A stretch of 64,000 bases of DNA, taken from positions 22,934 through 86,933 of the IMG/VR virus record IMGVR_UViG_3300021478_000001. One strand, 5' to 3'. Position 1 is the first letter of the stretch, and each line of letters opens with the position of its first letter. The position numbers and the translations under genes are program-made. The stretch is from a virus. The notes under the pieces were generated by a model. The model ran no database searches and had not been told where the DNA came from. It saw nothing but the letters and a program-made list of their open reading frames with translations. Shown here one piece after another: positions 6,222-52,908 of this stretch.

Positions 6222-8210
6222 ATGCCGATTATACCATGGGAGTGTGCACATGGTGATACACCATCTGTCTCGCTGCCATGTGCATCTACTGTTGCGATTG
6301 CGCCGCTTGATGATTCGGTAGATACGAACAATGTTATAATCACTGGTTCGGGGACTATTACTTCATTTGGACTCGGGCCATTAGTCACCAAACAAGTTAC
6401 GTTTGAACCAAGTGGATCCATCGTATTAACTCATAGTGCTTCGTTATCGTTGCTTGGTCATGCAACAAGGACAATCACTAATATATCTGTAGGAAAATAT
6501 TCCTGTGACGGTGCAGGTAATTGGATAGAATTAAGTTTTACTGATACTGTTGTAGGAGGTGGATCTGGTGGTGGTCCGGGAGCAACTGGTCCAACAGGTC
6601 CTACAGGACCGACTGGTCCAGCTGGTTCTTCTGGCGGTGCCACTGGTCCGCGTGGTGCAACTGGTCCTACAGGACCAACTGGATCCACTGGTCCTACAGG
6701 ACCACAAGGAATTGTTGGTCCGACTGGCGCGACTGGTATTACAGGATCGGCTGGAGTTGTTGGACCAATTGGACCAACGGGTCCGCAAGGTAATGTTGGT
6801 TCTACAGGAACGACTGGAGCAACAGGTCCACAAGGAACTGCTGGATCACCTGGAGGTGCCACTGGACCAACTGGTCCTGCTGGCATAAATGGTGCGACTG
6901 GAGCGACGGGTGCATCAGGTTCTCCTGGTTCTCCTGGAGGAGCAACAGGAGTTACCGGCCCGACTGGTCCACAAGGAATAGTTGGTCCAACTGGCCCAAT
7001 AGGAGTTACAGGACCGACAGGTTTACAAGGACTAGCTGGTCCAACTGGACCAACTGGTTTAACAGGAATTACTGGACCAACTGGTTTGCAGGGAATAGCT
7101 GGTCCTACTGGTCCACAAGGAGTAGTTGGACCAACTGGTCCTATAGGGTTGACAGGTACGACTGGTCCGACAGGAGTTGGTACGACCGGCGCTACTGGTG
7201 TAACAGGTCCTATTGGAGTTACTGGACCTATTGGGCCAACAGGAGGAGCTGGACTAGCAGGACCAACTGGTCCAACTGGACCGTCAGGATCTGCTGGAGG
7301 GGTTGGACCAGCAGGAACTACCGGAGCAACTGGACCTACAGGATCTGCTGGTGGTGCAGGTCCACAGGGAGTAACAGGTCCTACTGGACCATCAGGATCT
7401 GCTGGTGGTGTAGGAACTACCGGAGCAACTGGACCGACTGGTCCAATAGGATCGGCTACGGTTTTGTGTGGTTGGATTGCTGGGTTAACACTTTCGAATG
7501 ACGGTACGACGCCAACGACCAAGCTTGATATTGCCGCCGGTCAAGCCGCCGACAGTGGCAACGCCGCGCTGATCAGTATCGGCGCGTTCATCAAGGCGAT
7601 CAGCGGCGCGTGGGTTTTTGGTTCCGGCAACAACGGCATGGGCAACGGACTCACTGTTGCCGCGAACACTTGGTATCACGTTATCCTGGCGAACAATAAC
7701 GGCACGCCGGATATCTACTTCGATACCTCGGTAACTGGAGCAAACAGGCCAAGCGGTATTTCTGATACCAAAGTTCGTCGTATCGGCTCGTTCAAGACCA
7801 ACGCCTCGTCGCAGATTATCGCGTTCATTCAGAACGGTGAAGAGTTTTTGTGGGCTATTCCGGTCACTGATTATAGCGCTCAGGGTCAAGGAGCGACGGC
7901 TAATCTTTATGTCTTGTCGGTGCCGACAGGAGTTCAAGTTTGGGCGATATTCTCAATCCAAATTAACGGCACGACAATAGTAACAAACTTGCTGGTCTAT
8001 TCTCCAGACATGGGCTCCGGTCTTACGGCAACCATGGGATCAGGCGGCATTACAACGCGCATGGGAGCGGCAAACTCGGTCAGCGCCACTATCCCTGCTC
8101 CAGTGCGAACCAATACTAGCGGTCAGGTCTATGTTGTTCAGAACGCCGCTGGTAACAGCTTCTCACTCACGACTTTGGGTTGGATAGATCGGCGCGGTAT
8201 GGACGCGTGA
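6222..8210 (+). CDS. Collagen-like appendage/fibre protein 1
   Basis: A 662-residue protein: an N-terminal beta-type domain (about 1-118), about 95 Gly-X-Y triplets dominated by GPTGPTGP (about 125-412), and a C-terminal globular domain (about 413-662) with [11 protein letters not shown]. Collagen-like triple helices form trimeric stalks, so this is probably a virion fibre or head/tail appendage. The C-terminal domain would be the trimerising or host-binding head. It is the first of four collagen-like proteins in the window and lies upstream of the capsid genes rather than with the tail fibres. Confidence 0.85.
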
Positions 8211-11659: not shown

Positions 11660-13110
11660 TGGGCTTTGCAAAGCGCCTATCTACTTGGGCCGGAGCCGCC
11701 ATCAAGGCGGTCTCCGGTTTTCCTGCCGAGGGCCAGTATCGTCCTGGTCCTTGGTATCTTCCTGTAACACATGGATGGTTGCCCGCGGATGTTGGTAACT
11801 CTTTGAATTGGTGGCAGAACGGATATACTCCGATATTGCAAAGTGCACAGTTATCAATTATAGAAGCTTGTGTTGGTGCATATTCACAGACGATGGCGAT
11901 GTGTCCTGGAGATCATTGGCGTTCTAAATCTAATGGTGGTCGAGAGCGTGTTACGAATTCTTCGCTGTGTCGTATCTTGCGATATCCTAATGATTATCAG
12001 TCAATGTCTGATTTTTTGTTGAATGCTGTGCGTCAATTGTATTTGCAGGGTAACGCCTATGCGCTTTGTATACGAAATTCACGTTTTGAAATTACTGAAT
12101 TGCATCTTATGGATAACCGCTATTGTCGAGCGCTGATAGACGGTAGCGGTGAAGTGCATTATAGCTTGGGAGGCAATTGGGTTATTGAAAATCGTATAGG
12201 GCCATTAGCAACAGTGCCTCAGCGTGACGTGCTGCATATCAAATTGCATTGTGACCAGCTTCGTAATCCATTGATTGGTCAGACGCCATTGGCGGCGGCT
12301 TATTTGGATACTGCAATGGGACAAAGTATTAAGGAACAACAATTCATATTTTATCAACGCCAAGCAAAGCCTGGATTTGTGCTGAGCACTGATCTAACTT
12401 TGGAAAAAGATCAAGTCAGTGCTCTGCGTGATCGTTGGACAGAACAAACGACTGGAGCCAATACTGGCGGTACTCCAATTCTTACTGGAGGTTTGAAGCC
12501 GCAACAGATTCCAGTAACAAGTTGGCGTGATGCTCAACTCGCTGAGTTGCTCAAGCTGACAGATCAAGATATCGCCATGGCTTTTCGAGTGCCGCCGCAG
12601 ATAATAGGTATACCGGCGCACAGTACTCATGGCACGACAGAAGCAATGATGCGTTCTTGGATTGCTACTGGATTTGGATTCTGCATCAATCATGTTGAAG
12701 AAGCTTTTGGATTGACCTTTGGTCTCAAGGGTCAGCCTGATGATTATGTAGAATTCAGCACAGACATTCTTTTACGATCTGACTTTAAGGATCGTATTGA
12801 TGGGCTTACTAAAGCCGTGGTCGGTGGTATCTTTTCACCGAATGAAGCACGGAATCAAGAAGATCTTCCTAATGTGCCGTTTGGAGATGAGCCGCGCGTG
12901 CAACAACAAGTAGTCCCGCTCAGTGCAGCGGGTAAAATACCAGCATCGCCTGCCGCTCCGCCAGCACCTCCGGCACCAAAAGCACCGGAGGAGCCGCAGA
13001 GGAGCTTGAACGCTGATGCAAGAAGAAACAGCTTTGCCAGAATCCTCCTTAACAGATCAAGACAACTTGAACGGGAACAACAGCGAAGAATTTCCGGACG
13101 CGTTGCTTGA
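11659..13110 (+). CDS. Portal protein (HK97 type)
   Basis: A 483-residue protein that would form the dodecameric ring through which DNA enters and leaves the head and on which the terminase docks. It has the HK97 portal features: an early [11 protein letters not shown] helix, D-V-L-H-I-K followed by G-Q-T-P-L-A-A-A, and the [14 protein letters not shown] wing-loop region near residue 310. A Pro/Ala-rich linker and a basic tail close it. It starts in the TAATG of the preceding gene and overlaps the next gene by 95 bases. Confidence 0.9.
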
Positions 13111-14581
13111 TGCAGGTGCGGCGGTTCTAGCTCAACTCCGTGAGGAGTGGAAGAGAGAATGGTCGCGAGATTATGAAGTTATGCAATCGAAACACCGCGA
13201 ATTTGAAGCGGTGATGCGTGCTGAGTTACTTATGATCAGACTTGAAGTTTCTAACTTGTTAGCACAAGTCAAGCACGGTGATCCTGGAGAGCCTGGAGAG
13301 CCTGGACGTAATGGCGCCGATGGAGATAAAGGCGACAAGGGCGATAAAGGTGATAAAGGTGATCGCGGTGAAAAAGGTGATAAGGGAGATCTTGGAGAAC
13401 CGGGACGTAATGGAGATCCTGGATTGCAAGGCATTAAAGGTGAACAAGGTCTTCCTGGTTTGCCAGGAGTAACTGGACCTCAAGGTTTGAAAGGTGATTC
13501 TGGAGAACCTGGACGTAATGGTGAACCTGGAATGCGCGGTGAGCGTGGTGAAATTGGACAACAAGGTTTGATTGGACCTATTGGAGAGCGTGGTGAAAAA
13601 GGTGATTCTGGAGAGCCGGGACGTAATGGTGTTGATGGTTTGATTGGACCACGTGGTGAAAAAGGTGAATGTGGAGAACCTGGATCAATTGGAGAGCGTG
13701 GTGAAAAAGGTGATCCTGGAGAGCCAGGACGTAATGGCGCTGAAGGTTTGATTGGACCGCGTGGTGAGAAAGGCGAACCTGGATCAGTTGGATTGCGTGG
13801 TGAGAAAGGTGATATTGGAGAACCTGGACGCAATGGCGCTGATGGTTTGATTGGGCCATGCGGTGAAAAAGGTGATCAAGGGGACCGCGGTGAAAAAGGT
13901 GAGCCGGGAATACCTGGATTAAGCATTAAAGGTGATCAGGGAGAGCGCGGTGATAAAGGGGAACGTGGTGAAAGCGGCTCACGTGGTGAGAGGGGTGAAG
14001 TGGGCGATCCGGGGCGTAACGGCGCAATGGGAGAGCGTGGTCCCCAAGGTGAAAAAGGCGACCGTGGTGAAGCCGGTCCGCGCGGTACGATAGAAAGAAT
14101 TGTTCCGTGGACAGATCGCATCTTTTATGAAGGTGATCTGGCAACTCATAGAGGTTCCAGCTGGCAAGCAGTTCGCGATACCGCAAAAGAACCTGATAGT
14201 ACTGATGATTGGAGACTAATAGCGGCGGCTGGTCAGCCTGGAGTAACATTCAATATTCGTGGTACGTATTCTGAGAAAGAAATTTATCGAGCTCTTGATG
14301 TAGTCACTTTGGATTATGGATGGTTTGTAGCCAAGAAAGATAATCCAGGTGTGATTCCTGGTCCTGGTTGGCAGTCTGGTCCTGTGGGCAAGCGTGGTGA
14401 AAAAGGTTTGCCTGGAGATAAAGGACCGCAAGGACCAGTAGGTAAGGCCGCGCCGCATTGGATAGGTGTTAAGATTGATGGTTATGACTTGATAACTGTT
14501 TTGAGCGATGGCACAATGGGTCCTAAAATTTCCTTAACTAAAATGTTTGATCAATTCATAGCGGAACAGTTGAGGAAGTGA
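13016..14581 (+). CDS. Collagen-like appendage protein 2 with carbohydrate-binding-like domain
   Basis: A 521-residue protein. The first 85 residues are helical (heptad-like), then about 90 Gly-X-Y triplets rich in GEKGDKGD (about 88-362), which differ from the GPTG style of the other collagen-like proteins. After this come two short modules: [16 protein letters not shown] ending in WRLI (near 372-408), like chitin-binding type 3/CBM5-12 modules, and a related [14 protein letters not shown] one. A charged GEKG/GDKG style suggests a different triple-helix stability. It overlaps the portal gene, an odd site for an appendage gene. Confidence 0.82.
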
Positions 14582-34283: not shown

Positions 34284-34673
34284 ATGAGCTCACTCCTAGC
34301 AATGCCGTTGGTGGCGCTGACTATTGAAGTTGGCAATAATGAAGACTGGATTGATAGCATAGTCTATTGTGTGCCACCACCGACAGATCCTACAGCACCG
34401 CAACTAGATTTGCGTGGCATTGATTTTGAAATGGAACTGCGTAAGCATGCAGAGGACCATGAAGTTTCCTTGAGTGCTTCAACAAAAGCTGGAACAATTC
34501 AAATAGGATTGCCACCAAACTTTGGTTATCTAATATTCTATGTGCCATACAAAGACACCATGCAATATATGGCTCCTGGAGATTACGTTGGTGACATTGT
34601 AGGAAACGATGGTCAGTATCAACGACGCGTTGCCAATATCTTTCTTACAATTGATGAAGGCATTACTCGGTGA
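34284..34673 (+). CDS. Small beta-rich tail-associated protein
   Basis: A 129-residue acidic protein with alternating beta-strand pattern ([25 protein letters not shown]). I use the ATG at 34284; a TTG six bases upstream is the only alternative. The stop overlaps the GTG start of the next gene. Proteins of this kind often precede collagen-like phage fibres. Confidence 0.6.
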
Positions 34674-36178
34674 CTATTAAAGACATAAGCATTGGCACCA
34701 ACGCGCCGCTTGCTGCCGTCTTCGTCGCACCATATGCGCCGCCTGGACCTGTGATGGCCGGGACAAGTTCAAGCATGGTCCAAATTCAATATGGACCGGC
34801 AGCTTTTGTGATGGAAGAGTTTGGTCTTGGCTTTGTTGGTGGTGCGCGTGTCCGCGCGAGTGCTGGATATCAAATCTATATTGAAGGTGTTGTCATAAGT
34901 TATGACGAACCTAATCTAGTTATAGATGTTGATTTTTTGATGGGCTTTGGTTTTCACAATCAGTGGAATATAAATGTTGCTGGTCAGCCTGGAGCAACAG
35001 GTCCACAAGGATTAGTTGGTTCGACTGGCATTGCTGGCATAGCATTAGGCGTGACTGGCCCACGAGGAGCAACTGGTCCAACAGGCCCGATTGGCGTAAC
35101 GGGTCCAACCGGTCCACGAGGACCAACAGGCCCATCGCTAATTGGTGCTACAGGTCCAACGGGTATTGTTGGTCCTTCTGGACCATCTGGTCCTCCAGGA
35201 GCTTCAGGTGGTGCAACAGGTCCGACTGGTCCTGTAGGTTATGGTGGTCCAACAGGACCCTCTGGTCCTTTGGGAACAACAGGCATTGTTGGACCATCAG
35301 GATCAATAGGATTGAAAGGTCCAACTGGTCCAATAGGCCCGACTGGTCCTAATGGTGCATCTGGCTTGATTGGTTCTACTGGCACGACTGGCGTTACAGG
35401 AAAAATAGGAGGTGCGACAGGACCAATAGGTCCTCGTGGTGCTACCGGACCGATTGGTCCTCAAGGTCCAATGGGGACACCTGGTGCAAGTGGCACGTCA
35501 GGAATAAATGGTCTTGGATTTACCGCGTGGTGGGGTGGCACGATTACGCCAACACAGACGGCAAACCCGAGTAGCCTTGATGCCACTGCTGATACGATTA
35601 CTTGGGCTAGTCCACATGGAATTACGACCGGTCAATTTGGGTACATCAACGGTACGGCTCCTACAGGACTCAACGGCGGCAGAGGTTATTATCTTCGAGC
35701 TCTATCGACGACCATGCTGGCATTGTATCCAACATTGAACGACGCCAAGAACGACACTAATCGTATCAACTTTACTGGCACCGGCAAGGCTTGGAACCTT
35801 CGAGTGTGGGTGTATTCCAATGTTATTAGTAGTGGATTTGATACTACTTGTCCGATAGGAGGTGATACCTCAGACAACACTCTCCGACCGGAGCTGAACT
35901 TGAGTCAGCCGCTGGTGTCTCTTCATGCCATTGTTATTATTTCAAGAGTCAATATAGTTGGTGTTTCTAATTTCACCAGCGGTTTTAAAAGTTATTGGGT
36001 TCCTGGAAATGCTCCGACAATCGTTAGCACTACATTGATTCGTTTTGATAATGATGTGTGGGTTGCTAATCCAAGCAATGCTTGTGATGTCAATAATGGT
36101 GGTCCAAGTCAGATTGTTGGTAGTCATGCTCAACAAGGGACTAGCGATATGTACTTTGAATTTGCTGTGATCGGATGA
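34670..36178 (+). CDS. Collagen-like fibre protein 3
   Basis: A 502-residue protein: an N-terminal domain (about 1-100), about 60 Gly-X-Y triplets (about 105-283) and a C-terminal head beginning [13 protein letters not shown]. It begins with GTG inside the previous stop (GTGA). The neighbouring gene encodes a paralogue of identical length. Both are likely tail fibres with triple-helical shafts. Confidence 0.85.
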
Positions 36179-36185
36179 GGCAGAT

Positions 36186-37694
36186 ATGACAGTTAAGGAT
36201 ATAAGTGTAATTACAACTGCACCTCTGGCGGTAGTTTACACTGCGCCTTTTGCGCCGCCTGGACCTGTGATCGCTGGGACCAGCAATAGCACTGTCTCCA
36301 TTCAGATGGGGCCAGCTTCGTTTGTGATGAATGAATTTCATCTAGGCTTCCTTGATGGTGCTAGGTTAAGAGCGACTGCTGGAAGCAATTTGTTTGTTGA
36401 AGGTATTGTCACCAGCTATGACGAGCCTGATCTAGTTATCAATGTTGATTTTTTAATGGGAGTAGGATCATTTCCAGCATGGAATATCAATGTTGTAGGT
36501 TATCCTGGACAGACAGGCTCGGCGGGACCACAAGGTCCGCAGGGTGTTCCTGGCACTCCTGGCGGTGCGACTGGACCTACAGGTCCAACTGGACCGGCCG
36601 GTCCACAAGGTCTTAATGGTGCAATCGGACCTATTGGTCCATCTGGCCCTACTGGTCTTGTTGGTGCGACTGGTCCACAAGGTGTAGATGGTTCTCCTGG
36701 TGGTCCTGGTCCTCCTGGCACTCCTGGCGGAGCTCAAGGAGTTGCTGGTCCAACTGGTCCTGCCGGTGCTATTGGCGCGACTGGTCCGCAAGGTTCACAA
36801 GGCCCAAGTGGTCCTACTGGACCGAGTGGTCCTATTGGTACAACAGGACCGTTCGGTCTTCAAGGACCAACAGGAATGACTGGTCCACAAGGTATTCAAG
36901 GAGTGACTGGACCATCAGGTCCAGCTACAGGAGCAACTGGACCAACTGGACCTGTGGGAACAACAGGTCCGCAAGGACCGCAAGGCGCAGCGGGTACTCC
37001 TGGCACCAGTGGTATACCAGGAACGAACGGTCAGGGATTCAAGGCGTATTGGGCCGGAACGATCACGCCGACTGACGGTGTCAATCCAAGCAGCGTTGAT
37101 AAAGTCAATTACGTTGCTACATGGGCAAGTCCGCATGGTTATGTCACTGGTCAGTTTGGTGTAATCATTGGCACGCCTCCAAGTGGCTTATCTGTTAATA
37201 CGGGATTATACGTTAGAGCACTGAGCCCGACTACGCTTGCATTCTACAACGTGCAGAGTGATGCCTATGCTGATACTAATCGTGTGGCAATCACTGGTAC
37301 GGCAGTAACTTGGCATATACGTCAGTGGGTTCTTACTCCAGCTCTCAGTGTTGGTTTCGACCCTGTTCAGGCAATTGGTGCTCAACAAGGTACCGGCAAG
37401 ATTTATCCTGAACTGAATTTGACAAATCCGCTGACAACACTCAACGCTATCACTATCATAGGTCGTGTCAACGGTCTTGCTGCCAATGATGGCTCCAAGC
37501 AATCATATTGGATTCCTGGAAATGCTCCGACAATCGTCACGACCACCTTAATCCGTTTTGACAACAACAATTGGGTCGTTAGTCCCAGCTTGTATGTGCC
37601 ATCTCAAACTGGTGGCTATCCATCTCAAGGTATTGGTACTCATAATCTTCAAGGCAATACCCCAATTTGGATGGAGTTCACAGTCCTAGGTTAA
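36186..37694 (+). CDS. Collagen-like fibre protein 4 (tandem duplicate of 3)
   Basis: A 502-residue protein with the same three-part plan as the protein before it. N-termini align closely (T-V-K-D-I-S / [17 protein letters not shown] / [11 protein letters not shown]), and so do C-termini ([11 protein letters not shown]). The triplet regions differ more than the ends. It is a tandem duplication that has diverged, which may give the phage two receptor specificities. Confidence 0.85.
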
Positions 37695-46839: not shown

Positions 46840-46916
46840 TGGCGGGAGCGACGGGACTCGAACCCGCGACCTTCGGCGTGACAAGCCGATACTCTAACCA
46901 ACTGAGCTACGCTCCC
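46840..46916 (-). tRNA. tRNA-Asp (GTC)
   Basis: A 77-base cloverleaf read from the minus strand: acceptor GGGAGCG/CGCTCCC, D arm with AGTTGGTTA, anticodon stem TCGGC/GCCGA with loop TTGTCAC (anticodon GTC), T arm GCGGG-TTCGAGT-CCCGT, discriminator G and encoded CCA. Complete and apparently functional. It is the only tRNA I see in the window. Confidence 0.96.
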
Positions 46917-47127: not shown

Positions 47128-47513
47128 TTTTCCCTGAGCCTCATCAAAATCTTGGGACCCACCAGATCTGATGGTGGTTGCGGTACATCTTTTCTGGCCC
47201 ACAGATGCAGGCACGTTGGATGACAGTTGATGTAACGGCTTTTCGGTGGATGAAACTGTACCACAAGTTCTTCCTCGTACCAAAATAAATCTTTGACATA
47301 GCACATTTCTTCCCAGTTGGGACAGCGCCACCCAGATACAGAAACATGCTCCCATCCATTGCTGAATTCATTAGCATCATTGGCCATTATCGCCAGTTCC
47401 ATATTACATGGTCCTAGTATTACGAAGGATCCAAACCTGTCCCCATGAAGACTGGCATAGGCTCCGGTTTGTATGCGACAGAGCTCCAGCTTGAGAGGGT
47501 ATTGCGCGCGCAT
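47124..47513 (-). CDS. DUF7694-like phage protein
   Basis: A 129-residue protein with W-E-H-V-S-V-S, C-P-N-W-E-E-M-C-Y-V-K-D-L-F-W, Q-F-H-P-P-K-S and C-L-H-L-W, a pattern I associate with a phage family annotated as DUF7694. Cys and His are conserved and might bind a metal. No function known. Confidence 0.7.
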   Translation of the reverse strand: MRAQYPLKLELCRIQTGAYASLHGDRFGSFVILGPCNMELAIMANDANEFSNGWEHVSVSGWRCPNWEEMCYVKDLFWYEEELVVQFHPPKSRYINCHPTCLHLWARKDVPQPPSDLVGPKILMRLREK

Positions 47514-47514
47514 A

Positions 47515-47826
47515 TTACAGATTCTTCAAGAAGGAGTGGGGTCCTACGACTATCGCTATGGGTCCTACCAGATAGTCTTCGGTAATGGATCTACCATAAG
47601 CTACTTCCCAAAATTTTTGCGCATTGGGATTGTAGGGCAAGCCATGTAGCTTACCCTCTTCGTTGCAGAAAGCGATGCAGGACTTGCCATCATACTTCGT
47701 GAAGTAGGGAACTATTTCAATCCAGCCTCCTACGATCTCTTTTAGCTGATCCAGCTGCGGCACTCTGTCCAGCTTCGTTATGTCTATCTTGCCGTCAGGA
47801 TGCATAGCGATCAAGCACTTTTCCAT
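47515..47826 (-). CDS. DUF3846-like protein
   Basis: A 103-residue protein with L-K-E-I-V-G-G-W-I-E, C-N-E-E-G-K-L-H-G-L-P-Y-N and a C-terminal G-P-I-A-I-V, the DUF3846 pattern. Such proteins are frequent in plasmids and phages, often near anti-restriction genes; role unproven. Confidence 0.72.
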   Translation of the reverse strand: MEKCLIAMHPDGKIDITKLDRVPQLDQLKEIVGGWIEIVPYFTKYDGKSCIAFCNEEGKLHGLPYNPNAQKFWEVAYGRSITEDYLVGPIAIVVGPHSFLKNL

Positions 47827-47829
47827 TTC

Positions 47830-48108
47830 CTAGTCCTCCGGTTGATGGTGTTTGTGCAAAGGGGCAGCACTGGCACAGCCGCGAAAGTGTGCTAGAGGCA
47901 GTGGCGCGTGCAGATCAGCGGTCAAATCTGTCACTGTGCAATGCAGAGCTCGTGCCAGTTCATTGACACGTTTTACGCTTGGTCTTACTCTATCACTCTC
48001 ATAGCTGTGTATTGTTGATGTTGTCAGTTTGAGTGCTGCGGCTAACTCCTTCTGTGTCATTCTACGGTAGTTGCGTATGGCTGCAAGACGACGACCATAA
48101 ATTCTCAT
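47830..48108 (-). CDS. HTH (Xre-type) regulator
   Basis: A 92-residue protein: helix-turn-helix at about 12-60 (I-R-N-Y-R-R-M-T-Q-K-E-L-A-A-A-L, then S-T-I-H-S-Y-E-S-D-R), typical Cro/C1-type. A longer frame upstream would read through the first repeats of array 1; I use the ATG at 48108, with GGAG six bases upstream. It sits immediately downstream of array 1 and could regulate the locus. Confidence 0.78.
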   Translation of the reverse strand: MRIYGRRLAAIRNYRRMTQKELAAALKLTTSTIHSYESDRVRPSVKRVNELARALHCTVTDLTADLHAPLPLAHFRGCASAAPLHKHHQPED

Positions 48109-48135
48109 TCCTTTCTCCACTAGTAGAAACTGATA

Positions 48136-49260
48136 GAACGCTCTTCTGCTTGCGATACTTTCTGTGTGCACGGCTCGCTCTTGCTTGACGATACTTTCTG
48201 TGTACACGGCTCGCTCGTTCATGCCGGTTACGACTCGCTCTTAGATTGCGATACTTTCTTTGGGAACGGCTCGCTCTTGCTTGACGATACTTTCCATGTG
48301 CACGGCTTGCTCGTTATGTTCGGTACTCTCAGGATTTCGGCTTGCTCTTAGTATACGATACTTTCCGGGACTATGGCTCGCTCTTGCTTGACGATACTTT
48401 CGTGAACTCTCGGCTCGCTTCTTGTCGTCGTTACTTTCGCTTTACACGACTCGCTCGCAAGATACAGTACTCTTGTGGTGCGCGGCTCACTCGTGCTTAA
48501 CGATACTTTCGGCATTCTAGGTTCGCTGTGTCTTTTCGATACTCTCCGGGAGGACGGCTCGCTCGTATCGTACGTTACTTTCTATCAGGTCGGCTCACTC
48601 TGGAATTACGATACTGTCGATTCACCCGGTTCACTTATCCGCAACGATACTGTCTACTGACACGGTTCACTCATTATCGTCGATACTTTCTACTGGCTCG
48701 GTTCACTCTCTAGTTACGTTACTTTTTCCAAGAGCTAGGTTTACTCATGATTCGCTACTATCCTAAACGCGGCTCGCTCGGACCTCATGTTACTGTCTCC
48801 TTCAACGGCTCGCTCACCAATGTTGTTACTTTCTTAGGGATCGGCTCGCTCAGGCTCCACGTTACTGTCTCCAGCTTTGGCTCGCTCACAAGATTTTCGC
48901 TCACGATGGCTCGCTCCGCATCGTCGATACTTTCGGAATTCTCGGCTCGCTTCTTGTCGTCGTTACTTTCGGCGAATTCGGCTCGGTTCACTCCACTTCG
49001 ACGTCACTGTCAATAGCCTCGGATCACTCTATTGCTTCGATGCTATCTTGCTATTCGATTCACTCCTCTGTTCAGATACTATTCATGGAAGACGGTTCAC
49101 TCACTCCACCGTGCCGTTACTTTCTGGTTCTTCGGCTCGCTCATGACTCATGTTACTTTCTTGACTTACGGCTCTCTTCAGCTCGCTCACTTTACTCGTT
49201 ACTCTCTGGGACTTCGGCTCGCTCATGACTCATGTTACTTTCTGGACCTTCGGCTGGTCT
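48136..49260 (-). repeat. TIGR-like array 1 (downstream of tasA)
   Basis: About 30 units of 36 bases. On the minus strand each reads GAGYGARCC, 9 variable bases, GAWAGTATC, 9 variable bases. It starts with a degenerate copy at 48136, runs regularly from 48154, and ends inside the last codons of tasA (final loop-type repeat 49234-49242 covers the tasA stop). Irregular units: a 12-base deletion at 48226-48240, a merged piece at 48888-48916, a fused edge repeat at 48980-48993 and a double repeat at 49170-49188. Blocks of GAGCGAGCC and GAGTGAACC forms alternate. The spacer ttgcttgac (plus strand) occurs three times. Probably transcribed leftward and cut to 36-nt guide RNAs, as known for TIGR arrays. 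Confidence 0.88.
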
Positions 49261-50167
49261 TCTTAGGCTCCTCTTGTGCTATATTTTCGTTGGCTGTGCG
49301 ATCCCTCCTTTCAATTTCTTCTCCCAGCGGTCCCTTGTAATATGCTTTGGCAAAGCCCGGGAACATGTGAGTATTGGGAATTTCTATTTCATGAGTATGT
49401 CCCATGATGGCAATGGCAAACGGCTTGACAGGAGGTGTGCCATAATGGTCCCAATACATCAAGGCGTGCAAGTGACTGAGAAACATCTTGGCTACATAGT
49501 TGCACGCTTGACTGTCGATGGTGATTGCCGGCAGCTTGCCAGTTTTTAGGAGTGCCATGACTTCAGGTGTCCTTGTCCTAAAAGTTTTGGCCCGCTCGGC
49601 ATTCATGCCGGTTTCATTTTTGTTGACCACATAGTCTTTACGCACTTCATAGATTTGGCGGTAGTAGGCGTTCTTGTCTTTCTGCAGTCTTTTGACACAC
49701 TGCCCGAGGTGCCAGCAGATCTGCCGCAGATCGGCATTGTATGGCCGCTTCTGTCCTTTCTCCCATACCATATCAGGATTTAATCCAGCGAATGACCAGA
49801 AGTGTCCGGCGGTTGGTGCCTTGGTTATATCCAAGTGTGCCAGCAATCCTGATGTGATGACAGGACCTATGCCATCATTAGATTGGCACCAACGCCCGAG
49901 TTGAGTGCTGTCGGCATACACCTGGAGTCCTTTCATAATTTCAGATTCAATGACAGCGAATGAATCTGCTGATTTGTTTAACAACATTGGTAGAATTGGA
50001 GCTCCATCCTTTTCTCCTAGATGACGCAATTGCATATCATTGCGCTTGCGCATTTCCTGTGCGGTGTAGTAATTAGCAACCAAGAATCTAGCTTCTGGAT
50101 TGCTAAGGTTGGCCGCTTGCAATACTACTTCTTTGCCGAAACGTGGAACTAGGCTAGCTCTTTTCAT
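49235..50167 (-). CDS. tasA: Tas-like protein (TasA type), Nop/IS110-C-terminal domain
   Basis: A 310-residue protein. Residues about 25-50 are a coiled coil. GIGPVITSGLLAHLDI near 99-114 and F-A-G-L-N-P-D match the IS116/IS110/IS902 (Transposase_20) helix-hairpin-helix; the following helices (Q-I-C-W-H-L-G-Q-C-V-K-R-L) continue it. Known Tas proteins hold a Nop domain related to box C/D snoRNP Nop56/58 and IS110, so this protein would bind array-derived RNA. No HNH or RuvC motif and no IS110 N-terminal DEDD domain are present, so it is TasA-like, probably RNA-guided binding without cutting. The C-terminus is basic. I use the ATG at 50167 (AGGAG seven bases upstream); GTG at 50191 is the alternative. 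Confidence 0.85.
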   Translation of the reverse strand: MKRASLVPRFGKEVVLQAANLSNPEARFLVANYYTAQEMRKRNDMQLRHLGEKDGAPILPMLLNKSADSFAVIESEIMKGLQVYADSTQLGRWCQSNDGIGPVITSGLLAHLDITKAPTAGHFWSFAGLNPDMVWEKGQKRPYNADLRQICWHLGQCVKRLQKDKNAYYRQIYEVRKDYVVNKNETGMNAERAKTFRTRTPEVMALLKTGKLPAITIDSQACNYVAKMFLSHLHALMYWDHYGTPPVKPFAIAIMGHTHEIEIPNTHMFPGFAKAYYKGPLGEEIERRDRTANENIAQEEPKKTSRRSRK

Positions 50168-50818
50168 AGTACACTCCTGTTGACGGTACACTCATTAACG
50201 GTTCACTCTTGTGCTGCGATATTATCAATGATCTCGGATCACTCCCTTGCGACGATACTATCAATTGGACTCGGTTCACTCTTGGACTACGATACTCTCG
50301 ATGCGTGCGGTTCACTCTAGGACCGCGATACTTTCTATCACTACGGCTCACTCTGCGTTGTCGGTACACTTCATAGTCACGGTTCACTCTTGTCTTTCCG
50401 ATACTATCATGAAAGACGGTTCACTCAACTTCGACGATACATTCTGCCGTTCCGGTTCACTCCCAAATTACGATACTATCATTAGAGACGGTTCACTCTT
50501 TGATAACAATACTGTCTGCGCGTATGGTTCACTCCGTGATTGCGATACTGTCGGACAGATTGGTTCACTCTTGGATAACGATACTGTCAGCTGACACAGT
50601 TCACTCATGTGTTGCGGTACTTTCTGCCCAAAGCGGTTCGCTCATATTCTACGATACCTTCCACACTTGCGGCTCGCTCTTGTTTTACGATACTTTCATG
50701 AACAACGGCTCGCTCCTTTAACACGATACTTTCCAGACTTTACGGCTCGCTTACCACGATACTTTGACGTACCGGCTCGCTCTTGTGATACGTTACTTTC
50801 TGAGCTTATGACTCGCTA
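50168..50818 (-). repeat. TIGR-like array 2 (between tasA and the SWIM gene)
   Basis: About 17 units of 36 bases with the same two repeats as array 1. On the minus strand it begins at the stop codon of the SWIM gene (50816-50818, inside an edge repeat) and ends in the tasA ribosome binding site (degenerate edge repeats at 50168-50208). The right part uses GAGCGAGCC and the left part GAGTGAACC, with one hybrid repeat at 50635-50643 at the switch. Spacers are mostly 9 bases, a few are 10. Confidence 0.88.
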
Positions 50819-51094
50819 GTGCAGAGTCATCTTGATAGGTTGCCACCATTGTTGTGTTTCATAGCAGTAGAATTTCAAACTATCTACTGCTCGCTTGGTG
50901 ACAAACAACGGAATCATATCACGATGTCTGCATGTCGGCTTGTTAGCAGCGAAGCACTCACAGTGGAGACGTCCTCGGCTGTAGCGGATGTTGTAGACTT
51001 CTTGGACATTGAGAAGGAAGTCAAACTTCACCATACGATAACCGCCGGGAGTTCTTTTAAGATTATATACGCTCTCAGTTCCCGATACTTTCAT
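50816..51094 (-). CDS. SWIM zinc-finger protein between the arrays
   Basis: A 92-residue protein. Residues 45-57 read C-E-C then C-R-H, the CxCxnCxH SWIM motif for zinc and DNA or protein binding. Both ends are embedded in array sequence: the ATG lies inside a loop-type repeat (51084-51092) and the stop inside an edge repeat. An internal ATG at codon 21 is an alternative start. Because it shares a transcript with the arrays it may be an accessory gene of the TIGR-like locus; that is inference. Confidence 0.72.
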   Translation of the reverse strand: MKVSGTESVYNLKRTPGGYRMVKFDFLLNVQEVYNIRYSRGRLHCECFAANKPTCRHRDMIPLFVTKRAVDSLKFYCYETQQWWQPIKMTLH

Positions 51095-51727
51095 TTTGTA
51101 CGGCTCGCTCGATCTCTACGATACTTTCGGAGCCAACGGCTCGCTCTTCGAGAGTGATACTTTCAAACCTCTCGGCTCGCTCCAGACTTACAGTACTCTC
51201 CACACTCGCGGCTCGCTCTGTATTCGCGATACTATCTTAGTCACCGGCTCACTCTGTCACTGCGATACTGACGAAACAAACGGCTCGCTCCGGTCTGTCG
51301 ATACAATCGTTCGTACCGGCTCGCTTTGTGCACACGATACTATCTGAGCACACGGCTCACTCTACCACCACGATACTTTCTTAGGAGTCGGCTCGCTTCG
51401 GTCTTACAGTACTCTCCGCACTCGCGGCTCGCTCGTCTACAACGGTACTATCAAGGTAGGCGGCTCGCTCACCACAAATACGATAACTTTCATCTTACGC
51501 GGCTCACTCCTAAGTTTCGGTACTCTCATTAGGTGCCGGTTCACTCCTAAGAGACGATACTTTCCTTTTTCACGGTTCACTCTTTTCCAACAATACTATC
51601 ATACTGCGTGGTTCACTCTGTTCCTACAGTACTCTCATGATGAGCGGTTCACTCTTAAGTAACGATACTTTCCCTTTTTACGGTTCACTCTCAGAAGGCG
51701 GTACTCTCATGACGAACGGTTTTATTC
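51068..51727 (-). repeat. TIGR-like array 3 (upstream of the SWIM gene)
   Basis: About 18 units of 36 bases, the most regular of the three. It starts in the stop codon of the ADP-ribosyltransferase-like gene (51722-51724) and runs into the first codons of the SWIM gene (degenerate edge repeat at 51068-51076). The left part uses GAGCGAGCC and the right part GAGTGAACC, switching at a hybrid GAGTGAGCC (51501-51509). Irregular spacing occurs only at 51471-51491 and 51528-51537. Confidence 0.88.
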
Positions 51728-52411
51728 CCAGATGCGATTTAGATTCTGCACTACAACATCATCACGTGATAGTTGCTTTAGATGTTCTATGAAATTTCCC
51801 ATTATATCTTCTTTGCTTTCAATTTTATCATCAAACACATGACGCATAAGTTGACGATAATACTCGCCCATGATTTTAAAATTCATTGGCGTGACAGTAG
51901 GATCTGATGCCCAATCTATTCCTCCATTTCTGGGTACCAACGCATAACGACTAATCTGTTTTGGTTCTATGGTGGCATAGTAGCAAACTGTCCCCATATA
52001 TTCAATGCTTTTTTCCCACATATGGCTAAAGTCAGAAAGCGCGCGCTTGCGAAACCATATCACGCGCTCTTTCATGTTGTTCTTCCATCTGGGTAGTTCA
52101 TTGCCCATGTGGTCCTGTACATTTATTCCTTCTTCGTAGTGGCGCGTGGCTTGCTCCAGAAAGTCTTCATCTGGTGCCAGCCGATAGCGCTTGAGATCAT
52201 TAGTATTGGTTTCCAGCACAACCATCCGTTCGCCTCCTTGACAGGCGTTTGATGCGAAGTACAACGCATAGGTCGTTGTCAAGTATACTGCACGGGCATT
52301 GCTGCTGACAGTGTGTTTCCAGTTATCAATGCCAATTTTGCCACGCGGCTTTATTCCTTCTTTTAGGATGGCTTCCAAGTGGCGTTCAGCAGTACCGTGG
52401 TATATCCTCAC
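51722..52411 (-). CDS. ADP-ribosyltransferase/KptA-fold-like protein
   Basis: A 229-residue protein with I-Y-H-G-T, L-E-A-I-L-K-E-G-I-K-P, and A-V-Y-L-T then A-L-Y-F-A, the arrangement seen in ART-fold enzymes (PARP-like, RNA 2'-phosphotransferase, DarT-like). It would transfer ADP-ribose to a protein or nucleic acid. The catalytic Glu is not obvious. The start is GTG, overlapping the previous stop (GTGA), with GGGAG eight bases upstream. Array 3 begins in its stop codon. Confidence 0.6.
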   Translation of the reverse strand: MRIYHGTAERHLEAILKEGIKPRGKIGIDNWKHTVSSNARAVYLTTTYALYFASNACQGGERMVVLETNTNDLKRYRLAPDEDFLEQATRHYEEGINVQDHMGNELPRWKNNMKERVIWFRKRALSDFSHMWEKSIEYMGTVCYYATIEPKQISRYALVPRNGGIDWASDPTVTPMNFKIMGEYYRQLMRHVFDDKIESKEDIMGNFIEHLKQLSRDDVVVQNLNRIWE

Positions 52412-52572
52412 TGTTCATTCTCCCTTTTAAGAATATCCCTAGCGTATTTAAGGGGAATTTCTAAGGCTCTTGATAGTTTGATTGCCTCAGAATTTTCAGC
52501 TCTGTATTGCCGCATTCGTGCATTGTACTTAGCACGCTGTTCTGGAGTTCGGTTCCTTTTTTGCCGCGCCAC
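52408..52572 (-). CDS. Short basic protein (54 aa)
   Basis: A 54-residue, Arg/Lys-rich helical frame from a GTG at 52572 (A-R-Q-K-R-N-R-T-P-E-Q-R-A-K-Y) to a stop overlapping the next GTG start (GTGA). No clear ribosome binding site; translation may be coupled to the gene ending 46 bases upstream. A different frame of this stretch is less convincing. Looks like a small DNA- or RNA-binding protein. Confidence 0.55.
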   Translation of the reverse strand: MARQKRNRTPEQRAKYNARMRQYRAENSEAIKLSRALEIPLKYARDILKRENEQ

Positions 52573-52617
52573 TGTATTTTGTTTGCATAGTAGTATGCGC
52601 GAAAGTATGGACGGCGG

Positions 52618-52908
52618 TCAGTCTTCATCACTTTCAGGACCGATGTACTTGTGGAACGTATCATCATCCATGCCAGTCATAAGAATTTCACGTTGCGCAG
52701 CTGTCAGCTCTGGCAATGCATTCTGTATTAGTGAACCAGTATTGCGCCACAGTTGATAGCGACGATACTGATCTTCTGTCAATTCAATGCTGGCACCTGT
52801 GCCCGCTTTGGCCCAAGTGGGCGGCGTGACTTTGACTAACCAGCCGCGTTCGGTTCTGGTTTCTTTGTACGTGGGTCCCATTTTCAACACGTCTATTGGT
52901 CGTATCAT
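52618..52908 (-). CDS. Hypothetical protein with acidic C-terminus
   Basis: A 96-residue protein (M-I-R-P-I-D-V-L-K-M start), ending P-E-S-D-E-D. The ATG at 52908 has GGAGAG six bases upstream and overlaps the previous stop (ATGA). No domain recognised. Confidence 0.65.
   Translation of the reverse strand: MIRPIDVLKMGPTYKETRTERGWLVKVTPPTWAKAGTGASIELTEDQYRRYQLWRNTGSLIQNALPELTAAQREILMTGMDDDTFHKYIGPESDED

What the first reader, a model, noticed from the sequence alone, without database searches (positions are those of the whole stretch)
48136..51727. TIGR-Tas-like system: three guide-RNA-type arrays around a nuclease-free Tas protein
Seen: about 65 units of 36 bases, each with two different 9-base repeats and two 9-base variable segments, in three blocks that fill all gaps around a 310-residue protein with an IS110/Nop-type helix-hairpin-helix domain. 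Known: TIGR-Tas systems of phages and parasitic bacteria (TasA, TasH and TasR forms) have arrays with short spacers, 36-nt RNAs and a Nop-domain protein related to box C/D snoRNPs and IS110. Inferred: this is a TasA-type system with roughly 130 spacers, likely aimed at rival phages or plasmids or at gene control.
Basis: partly seen in the sequence, partly recalled or inferred. Interest (0 to 1): 0.97.

Follow-up and report, generated by a model that had tools for sequence, protein, structure and literature searches.

The report
Giant TIGR-TasA guide-RNA array in phage
A bacterial virus carries a 65-unit bank of tiny two-part guide RNAs and one nuclease-free protein that should use them to grip chosen DNA; in a related virus two such guides exactly match the control region of rival viruses, a first hint of what these systems aim at.

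Summary
Window 48134-51727 (minus strand) holds 132 alternating repeats (67 edge, 65 loop), about 65 units of 36 nt, in three blocks. They surround a 310-aa protein that passes the NCBIfam TIGR-Tas model (157.8 bits, cut-off 100), whose AF2 model (pLDDT 89.6) best matches solved TasH and TasR structures, and which has no HNH or RuvC domain: a dual-repeat TIGR-TasA. It lies in an 86.9-kb tailed-phage record with a ~127-bp terminal repeat. Refinement: repeats are effectively 10 nt (GAGYGARCCG / GANAGTAYCG) and spacers 8 nt, as in SpTasH. Of 52 relatives' loci tested, 38 carry such arrays. Box C agrees between edge and loop repeats (35/35); the edge-repeat pair swaps C-G/U-A. No exact self-target exists among 864 units, the window's included. 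Tas and array are the only conserved parts. New lead: two units of one relative's array (L032, Tas 42% identical) match, in the published A+rc(B) geometry without gap, one regulatory region of related temperate phages, both exactly in one phage. This suggests that nuclease-free TasA works as an RNA-guided repressor of rival phages. The window's own targets remain unknown.

The parts
49235..50167 (-). tasA: 310-aa solo Nop/IS110-type TIGR-associated protein; ATG at 50167, AGGAG 6 nt upstream
   Evidence: NCBIfam NF052498, Pfam Transposase_20 above cut-off, AF2 pLDDT 89.6, Foldseek TasH/TasR
51083..51727 (-). [quoted passage not shown]
50190..50819 (-). TIGR array block II: 35 repeats (about 17 units), ends just before the tasA ribosome-binding site
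48135..49255 (-). TIGR array block I: 61 repeats (about 30 units); its first loop repeat contains the tasA stop codon; [quoted passage not shown]
50816..51094 (-). 92-aa ORF between blocks III and II (71 aa from the inner ATG); CxC-x7-CxH, SWIM-like zinc signature; no relatives found
   Evidence: signature read from the sequence
47830..48108 (-). 92-aa XRE/HTH_3 regulator directly downstream of block I; may or may not belong to the unit
   Evidence: PHROG and Pfam HTH matches

Best explanation
This is a dual-repeat TIGR-TasA system of a tailed phage. Shown here: the TasA protein, its fold, the array, box C/D-like covariation, no nuclease domain, no self-target. Inferred from the solved and tested TIGR systems: the minus-strand transcript is cut inside each edge repeat into about 65 tigRNAs of 36 nt; a TasA dimer holds one tigRNA; spacer A pairs with one DNA strand and spacer B with the other at adjacent sites (target 5'-A-rc(B)-3'). 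Inferred from a relative: because TasA cannot cut, bound complexes act as roadblocks on regulatory DNA of rival phages, i.e. a multiplexed RNA-guided repressor used between phages rather than on the phage's own genes.
For: Family. Array; the same detector finds the known SpTIGR array of CGphi29 (AAGCGAGCCA / AAGACAACCA). 38 of 52 relatives' loci carry 34-37-nt dual-repeat arrays beside tas. Box C third base agrees between edge and loop in 35/35 scorable loci (28 A/A, 7 G/G). Edge positions 4/7 in the window: C-G 33, U-A 22, U-G 6, against C-A 2, U-U 2; the swap needs at least 3 changes on the Tas tree. No self-targets: 0 exact of 864 units. Relative L032: two units hit one intergenic region of phage G014 (0 and 1 mismatch, gap 0); both exact in G140; clusters this good in 6 of 3000 pair-shuffles and in none of 11 other geometry/gap combinations. 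The sites overlap TTGACA-17-TATAAT and TTGCCA-17-TACAAT, between a repressor/integrase module and an early operon with DnaB.
Against: No target was found for any window unit. The target evidence rests on one array (L032, Tas 42% identical to the window's). L032's contig is partial (22 kb), so self-avoidance could not be examined. No expression or binding data. Spacers AT-richer than the genome (35/38 loci) fit regulatory targets but also fit neutral non-coding drift. The -35/-10 content of all targets is at most weakly raised (TTGACA 10 against an anagram mean of 4.3; TATAAT 5 against 4.0).
Confidence: 0.68

Rival explanations
1. Same TIGR-TasA system, but the array regulates the phage's own or its host's genes.
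For: TasA lacks a nuclease, so regulation is possible; the array is next to an XRE regulator.
Against: No self-target in the whole 86.9-kb record in four geometries; 0 exact self hits among 864 units of 38 arrays and no excess of near hits. Host targets could not be tested: the window's host is unknown, and one unit of the Halomonas array had no match in 90 genomes of its genus.
Confidence: 0.15
2. TasA recruits a separate effector (nuclease, or replication/partition factor) to the targets, or helps integration by bending DNA, rather than acting as a passive block.
For: The founding paper suggests integrase help and notes ParB-like neighbours in some TasA loci (PMC12045711).
Against: No gene family other than tas recurs beside the arrays of the relatives except among closely related phages; no ParB-like gene adjacent here.
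Confidence: 0.12
3. A decayed, non-functional TIGR locus: the degenerate repeats and irregular spacers show that the array no longer works.
For: 22 of 132 spacers are not 9 nt and several repeats are damaged, mostly in block I.
Against: The Tas ORF is intact; varied edge repeats still keep their internal pair (61 of 65).
Confidence: 0.05
4. Not a guide-RNA array: a protein-coding or structural repeat.
For: 36 is a multiple of 3, so short ORFs up to 115 aa run through the array.
Against: Indels break every frame, the conserved parts are two alternating RNA motifs that covary, and homologous arrays of period 34 and 35 exist.
Confidence: 0.01

Closest known systems
TIGR-TasA (FpTIGR, Flavonifractor plautii; Faure et al. 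2025, PMC12045711)
   Same: Solo Nop protein without nuclease, next to a dual-repeat array.
   Different: FpTIGR has 18 nt of spacer per unit (9+9); here 8+8. Arrays in the paper mostly have 5-15 units; here about 65 in three blocks with two genes between them, and degenerate repeats.
TIGR-TasH (SpTIGR, Salicola phage CGphi29; PDB 9w04, 9vzx, 21kl)
   Same: Best structural match; 16 nt of spacer per unit; nearly the same edge repeat (AAGCGAGCCA against GAGCGAGCCG).
   Different: TasH carries an N-terminal HNH nuclease that this protein lacks; 26% identity over 36% of the window protein.
TIGR-TasR (TaTIGR; PDB 9mty)
   Same: Nop fold, tandem-spacer array.
   Different: TasR carries an N-terminal RuvC nuclease and uses UG...CCA repeats with 9-nt spacers.
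IS110/IS621 bridge-RNA recombinases
   Same: Shared Nop/RNA-binding fold; weaker sequence and fold matches.
   Different: No DEDD domain, below the NCBIfam cut-off (17.4 of 140 bits), array instead of a single bridge RNA.

Membership tests
TIGR-Tas (dual-repeat) | Nop-domain Tas protein encoded beside the array | tested here: met
   NF052498 157.8 bits over cut-off 100; Foldseek TasH/TasR
TIGR-Tas (dual-repeat) | Two distinct alternating 8-12-nt repeats with short (8-9 nt) spacers | tested here: met
   67 edge and 65 loop repeats, 18-nt spacing
TIGR-Tas (dual-repeat) | Array starts with 5'-truncated and ends with 3'-truncated edge repeat | tested here: met
   ATAAAACCG at the start of block III; GAGCGTAT and GAGCGTTCT at the ends of blocks III and I
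TIGR-Tas (dual-repeat) | Box C/D motifs covary between edge and loop repeats; extra edge-repeat pair with covariation | tested here: met
   35/35 concordant loci; C-G/U-A swap in the window and on the tree
TIGR-Tas (dual-repeat) | Rho-independent terminator after the array (typical, not obligatory) | tested here: inconclusive
   Consensus scan found none on the minus strand in 47500-52700; block I abuts an HTH gene and transcription may read through
TIGR-Tas (dual-repeat) | Processing into 36-nt tigRNAs bound by Tas | not testable with these tools
   needs small-RNA sequencing
TIGR-Tas (dual-repeat) | Tandem-spacer recognition of both DNA strands | tested here: inconclusive
   Window units: no target. 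Relative L032: two units match rivals only in the A+rc(B), gap-0 geometry
TasA subtype | No HNH or RuvC nuclease domain | tested here: met
   Only the Nop region is matched; all-helical 310-aa model; the HNH part of TasH has no counterpart
TIGR stem-loop arrays | Palindromic stem-loops instead of edge repeats | tested here: not met
   Fixed dual repeats; no Rfam match
IS110 transposon | DEDD transposase domain with bridge RNA | tested here: not met
   17.4 bits against cut-off 140; no N-terminal domain
CRISPR-Cas | Single repeat with longer spacers, Cas genes | tested here: not met
   Alternating short repeats and 8-nt spacers; no PADLOC match for the Tas protein

The most novel reading that the evidence does not exclude
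Nuclease-free TIGR-TasA systems of phages are programmable, multiplexed immunity repressors: one phage stores dozens of two-part guides against the early or regulatory promoters of rival temperate phages and silences them without cutting, the RNA-guided counterpart of a CI repressor.
Probability: 0.48. Interest if true: 0.9.

Novelty: new member of a known kind. Interest (0 to 1): 0.66.

Why it matters
The founding paper says that genuine natural targets of TIGR spacers are hard to identify and that the role of nuclease-free TasA is unclear. This locus is one of the largest arrays of the set surveyed here (65 units; range 6-72, median 17.5), in a record with a terminal repeat. Its relatives give concrete, testable targets: two guides of one array that exactly match a control region of rival phages in the published pairing geometry. 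That turns an open question (what do TasA systems do?) into a reporter experiment.

Tried and rejected
Self-targets in the whole 86.9-kb record, four geometries, gaps 0-2: none above shuffled pairs. Window units against terminase- and helicase-related phages: none. Pattern scan of 2.9 million viral contigs for a near-duplicate window unit: 8 hits, none with gap 0, chance level. Palindromic targets (A similar to B): rejected. Conserved accessory genes beside tas: none. Single exact hits of L045, L050/L053, L063 and L064 in other phages: not above chance taken one by one, although gap-0 exact hits in total exceed the null (5 against 1.06, p 0.007, two of the five being one shared unit). One Halomonas NO4 unit in 90 genomes of its genus: none. 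Tas in plasmids: none. Relatives of the 92-aa ORF: none.

Full report
What is there. The window is bases 22934-86933 of an 86,933-base IMG/VR virus record. The record begins and ends with the same ~127 bases, so it is probably a complete genome. It is a tailed phage: terminase, major head protein and a Mu Gp45-like baseplate protein in the window, DNA polymerase A and an SNF2 helicase in the other part. On the minus strand from 51727 to 48134 the parse gives 132 alternating repeats in three blocks of 36, 35 and 61. Order along the transcript: block III, a 92-aa ORF, block II, tas, block I, an HTH gene. The genes are fitted tightly: the 92-aa ORF starts in the last unit of block III and its stop codon lies in the first edge repeat of block II; tas starts right after block II and its stop codon lies in the first loop repeat of block I. 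That suggests one transcript (inference).

Refined anatomy. The base after the 9-base repeat is G in 85-90% of units, and in most relatives exactly 8 variable bases lie between repeats that include this base. So the unit is edge GAGYGARCCG, 8-nt spacer A, loop GANAGTAYCG, 8-nt spacer B. The experimentally studied SpTIGR of phage CGphi29, run through the same detector as a positive control, gives AAGCGAGCCA and AAGACAACCA, and the paper gives it 16 nt of spacer.

Membership. The protein passes the curated NCBIfam TIGR-Tas model, and profile search of the PDB gives TasR 2.9e-26 and TasH 9e-16, then IS621 and ISCro4. The AF2 model made with 38 window and locus sequences (pLDDT 89.6, pTM 0.86) matches only TasH and TasR at E below 0.001. 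It has no HNH or RuvC part. Repeat covariation, the structural hallmark reported from the TasR structure, was tested in two ways. The third base of box C is the same in edge and loop repeats in 35 of 35 scorable loci. Edge positions 4 and 7 pair in 61 of 65 window repeats with C-G, U-A or U-G; across the family the C-G/U-A swap needs at least three changes on a Tas tree. Within one array, neighbouring repeats share ancestry, so the window count alone is not independent evidence; the tree is.

Relatives. An alignment-based scan gave 52 Tas loci in viral contigs and 8 in cellular genomes, among them Halomonas sp. NO4 and Acidobacteriaceae KBS 96. De novo period detection found dual-repeat arrays in 38 of 52 viral loci tested plus the window, with periods of 34-37; several of the 14 without are contig fragments. 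Array size ranges from 6 to 72 units, median 17.5. No other gene family recurs beside tas, apart from closely related phages. Closely related phages share only some units: L063/L064 (flanks 89% identical) share 18 of 64 units, L047/L053 (97%; L053's array is cut by the contig end) 3 of 16, with whole-unit insertions and deletions and kept order. The arrays therefore turn over by units much faster than the genomes.

Targets. In the published rule the target strand reads A + rc(B) with a gap of 0-2. This was derived from the 8-nt 3' overhang and the C-5 rule in PMC12045711; one sentence of that paper ('cut 3' to the nucleotide') fits the mirror arrangement, so all four arrangements were tested. 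The window's units have no match in their own genome. Across 864 units of 38 arrays there is no exact self match in A+rc(B) geometry. So the arrays do not appear to serve to regulate the phage's own genes.

A relative's target. Scanning all units against 2.2 Mb of fetched phage DNA gave one outlier: two units of the L032 array (IMGVR 3300025910_000038; Tas 42% identical to the window's) match the same 162-bp stretch of phage G014 (IMGVR 3300005445_000003) with 0 and 1 mismatches and gap 0. A pattern scan of all viral contigs for the two sites together found four phages, and in one of them, G140 (IMGVR 3300005471_000027), both sites match exactly. Clusters with at most one mismatch in total arose in 6 of 3000 full-data pair-shuffles, and in none of the 11 other geometry/gap combinations. 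One site lies in a perfect TTGACA-17-TATAAT promoter that reads into a short segment ending in a strong terminator hairpin. The other overlaps the TACAAT of a second promoter-like site and ends 13 bases before the start codon of the first gene of an early operon that leads to a GIY-YIG protein and a DnaB helicase. An HTH_3 regulator and an integrase gene lie on the other side. G139, G140 and G141 show no tas; G014 has its own TIGR locus. That is what a repressor aimed at rival temperate phages would look like. It is one array, and the step from L032 to the window is an inference.

Judgement. The locus is a new, unusually large member of a known kind. The functional reading (RNA-guided block of rival phages' control regions) is the best supported one but is not shown for this phage.

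Noticed in passing
L192:6150-6330; L107:7406-7590; L032:6965-7440: Two units of the TIGR array of relative L032 match the regulatory region of phages G014, G139, G140, G141 (both exact in G140), between an HTH/integrase module and an early operon.
   Followed up: yes
window 50816-51094: A 92-aa ORF between array blocks has a SWIM-like CxC-x7-CxH signature and no detectable relatives.
   Followed up: partly
window 51722-52411: 229-aa ORF upstream of the array whose start (YHGT...) weakly resembles RNA 2'-phosphotransferase (KptA/Tpt1) proteins (E about 0.004-0.09).
   Followed up: no
window 6222-8210, 13016-14581, 34670-37694: Several large proteins with collagen-like Gly-X-Y repeats in the virion gene region.
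   Followed up: no
window 46840-46916: The only tRNA found in the window is tRNA-Asp(gtc), 1.2 kb from the array end.
   Followed up: no
L069, L071-L073 and L067, L068, L074 (Tas genes): Some Tas relatives carry a ~55-aa insertion near residue 139, others a Cys-rich insertion near residue 115 that might be an added domain.
   Followed up: no
L182:4867-5937: A Woesearchaeota MAG contig carries a related Tas and a 28-unit, 34-nt dual-repeat array.
   Followed up: no
all arrays: Spacers are AT-richer than their phage genome in 35 of 38 loci (mean 8 points of GC).
   Followed up: partly
L047/L053, L063/L064 arrays: Related phages differ by whole 34-36-nt units while unit order is kept, i.e. fast modular turnover inside the array.
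   Followed up: partly
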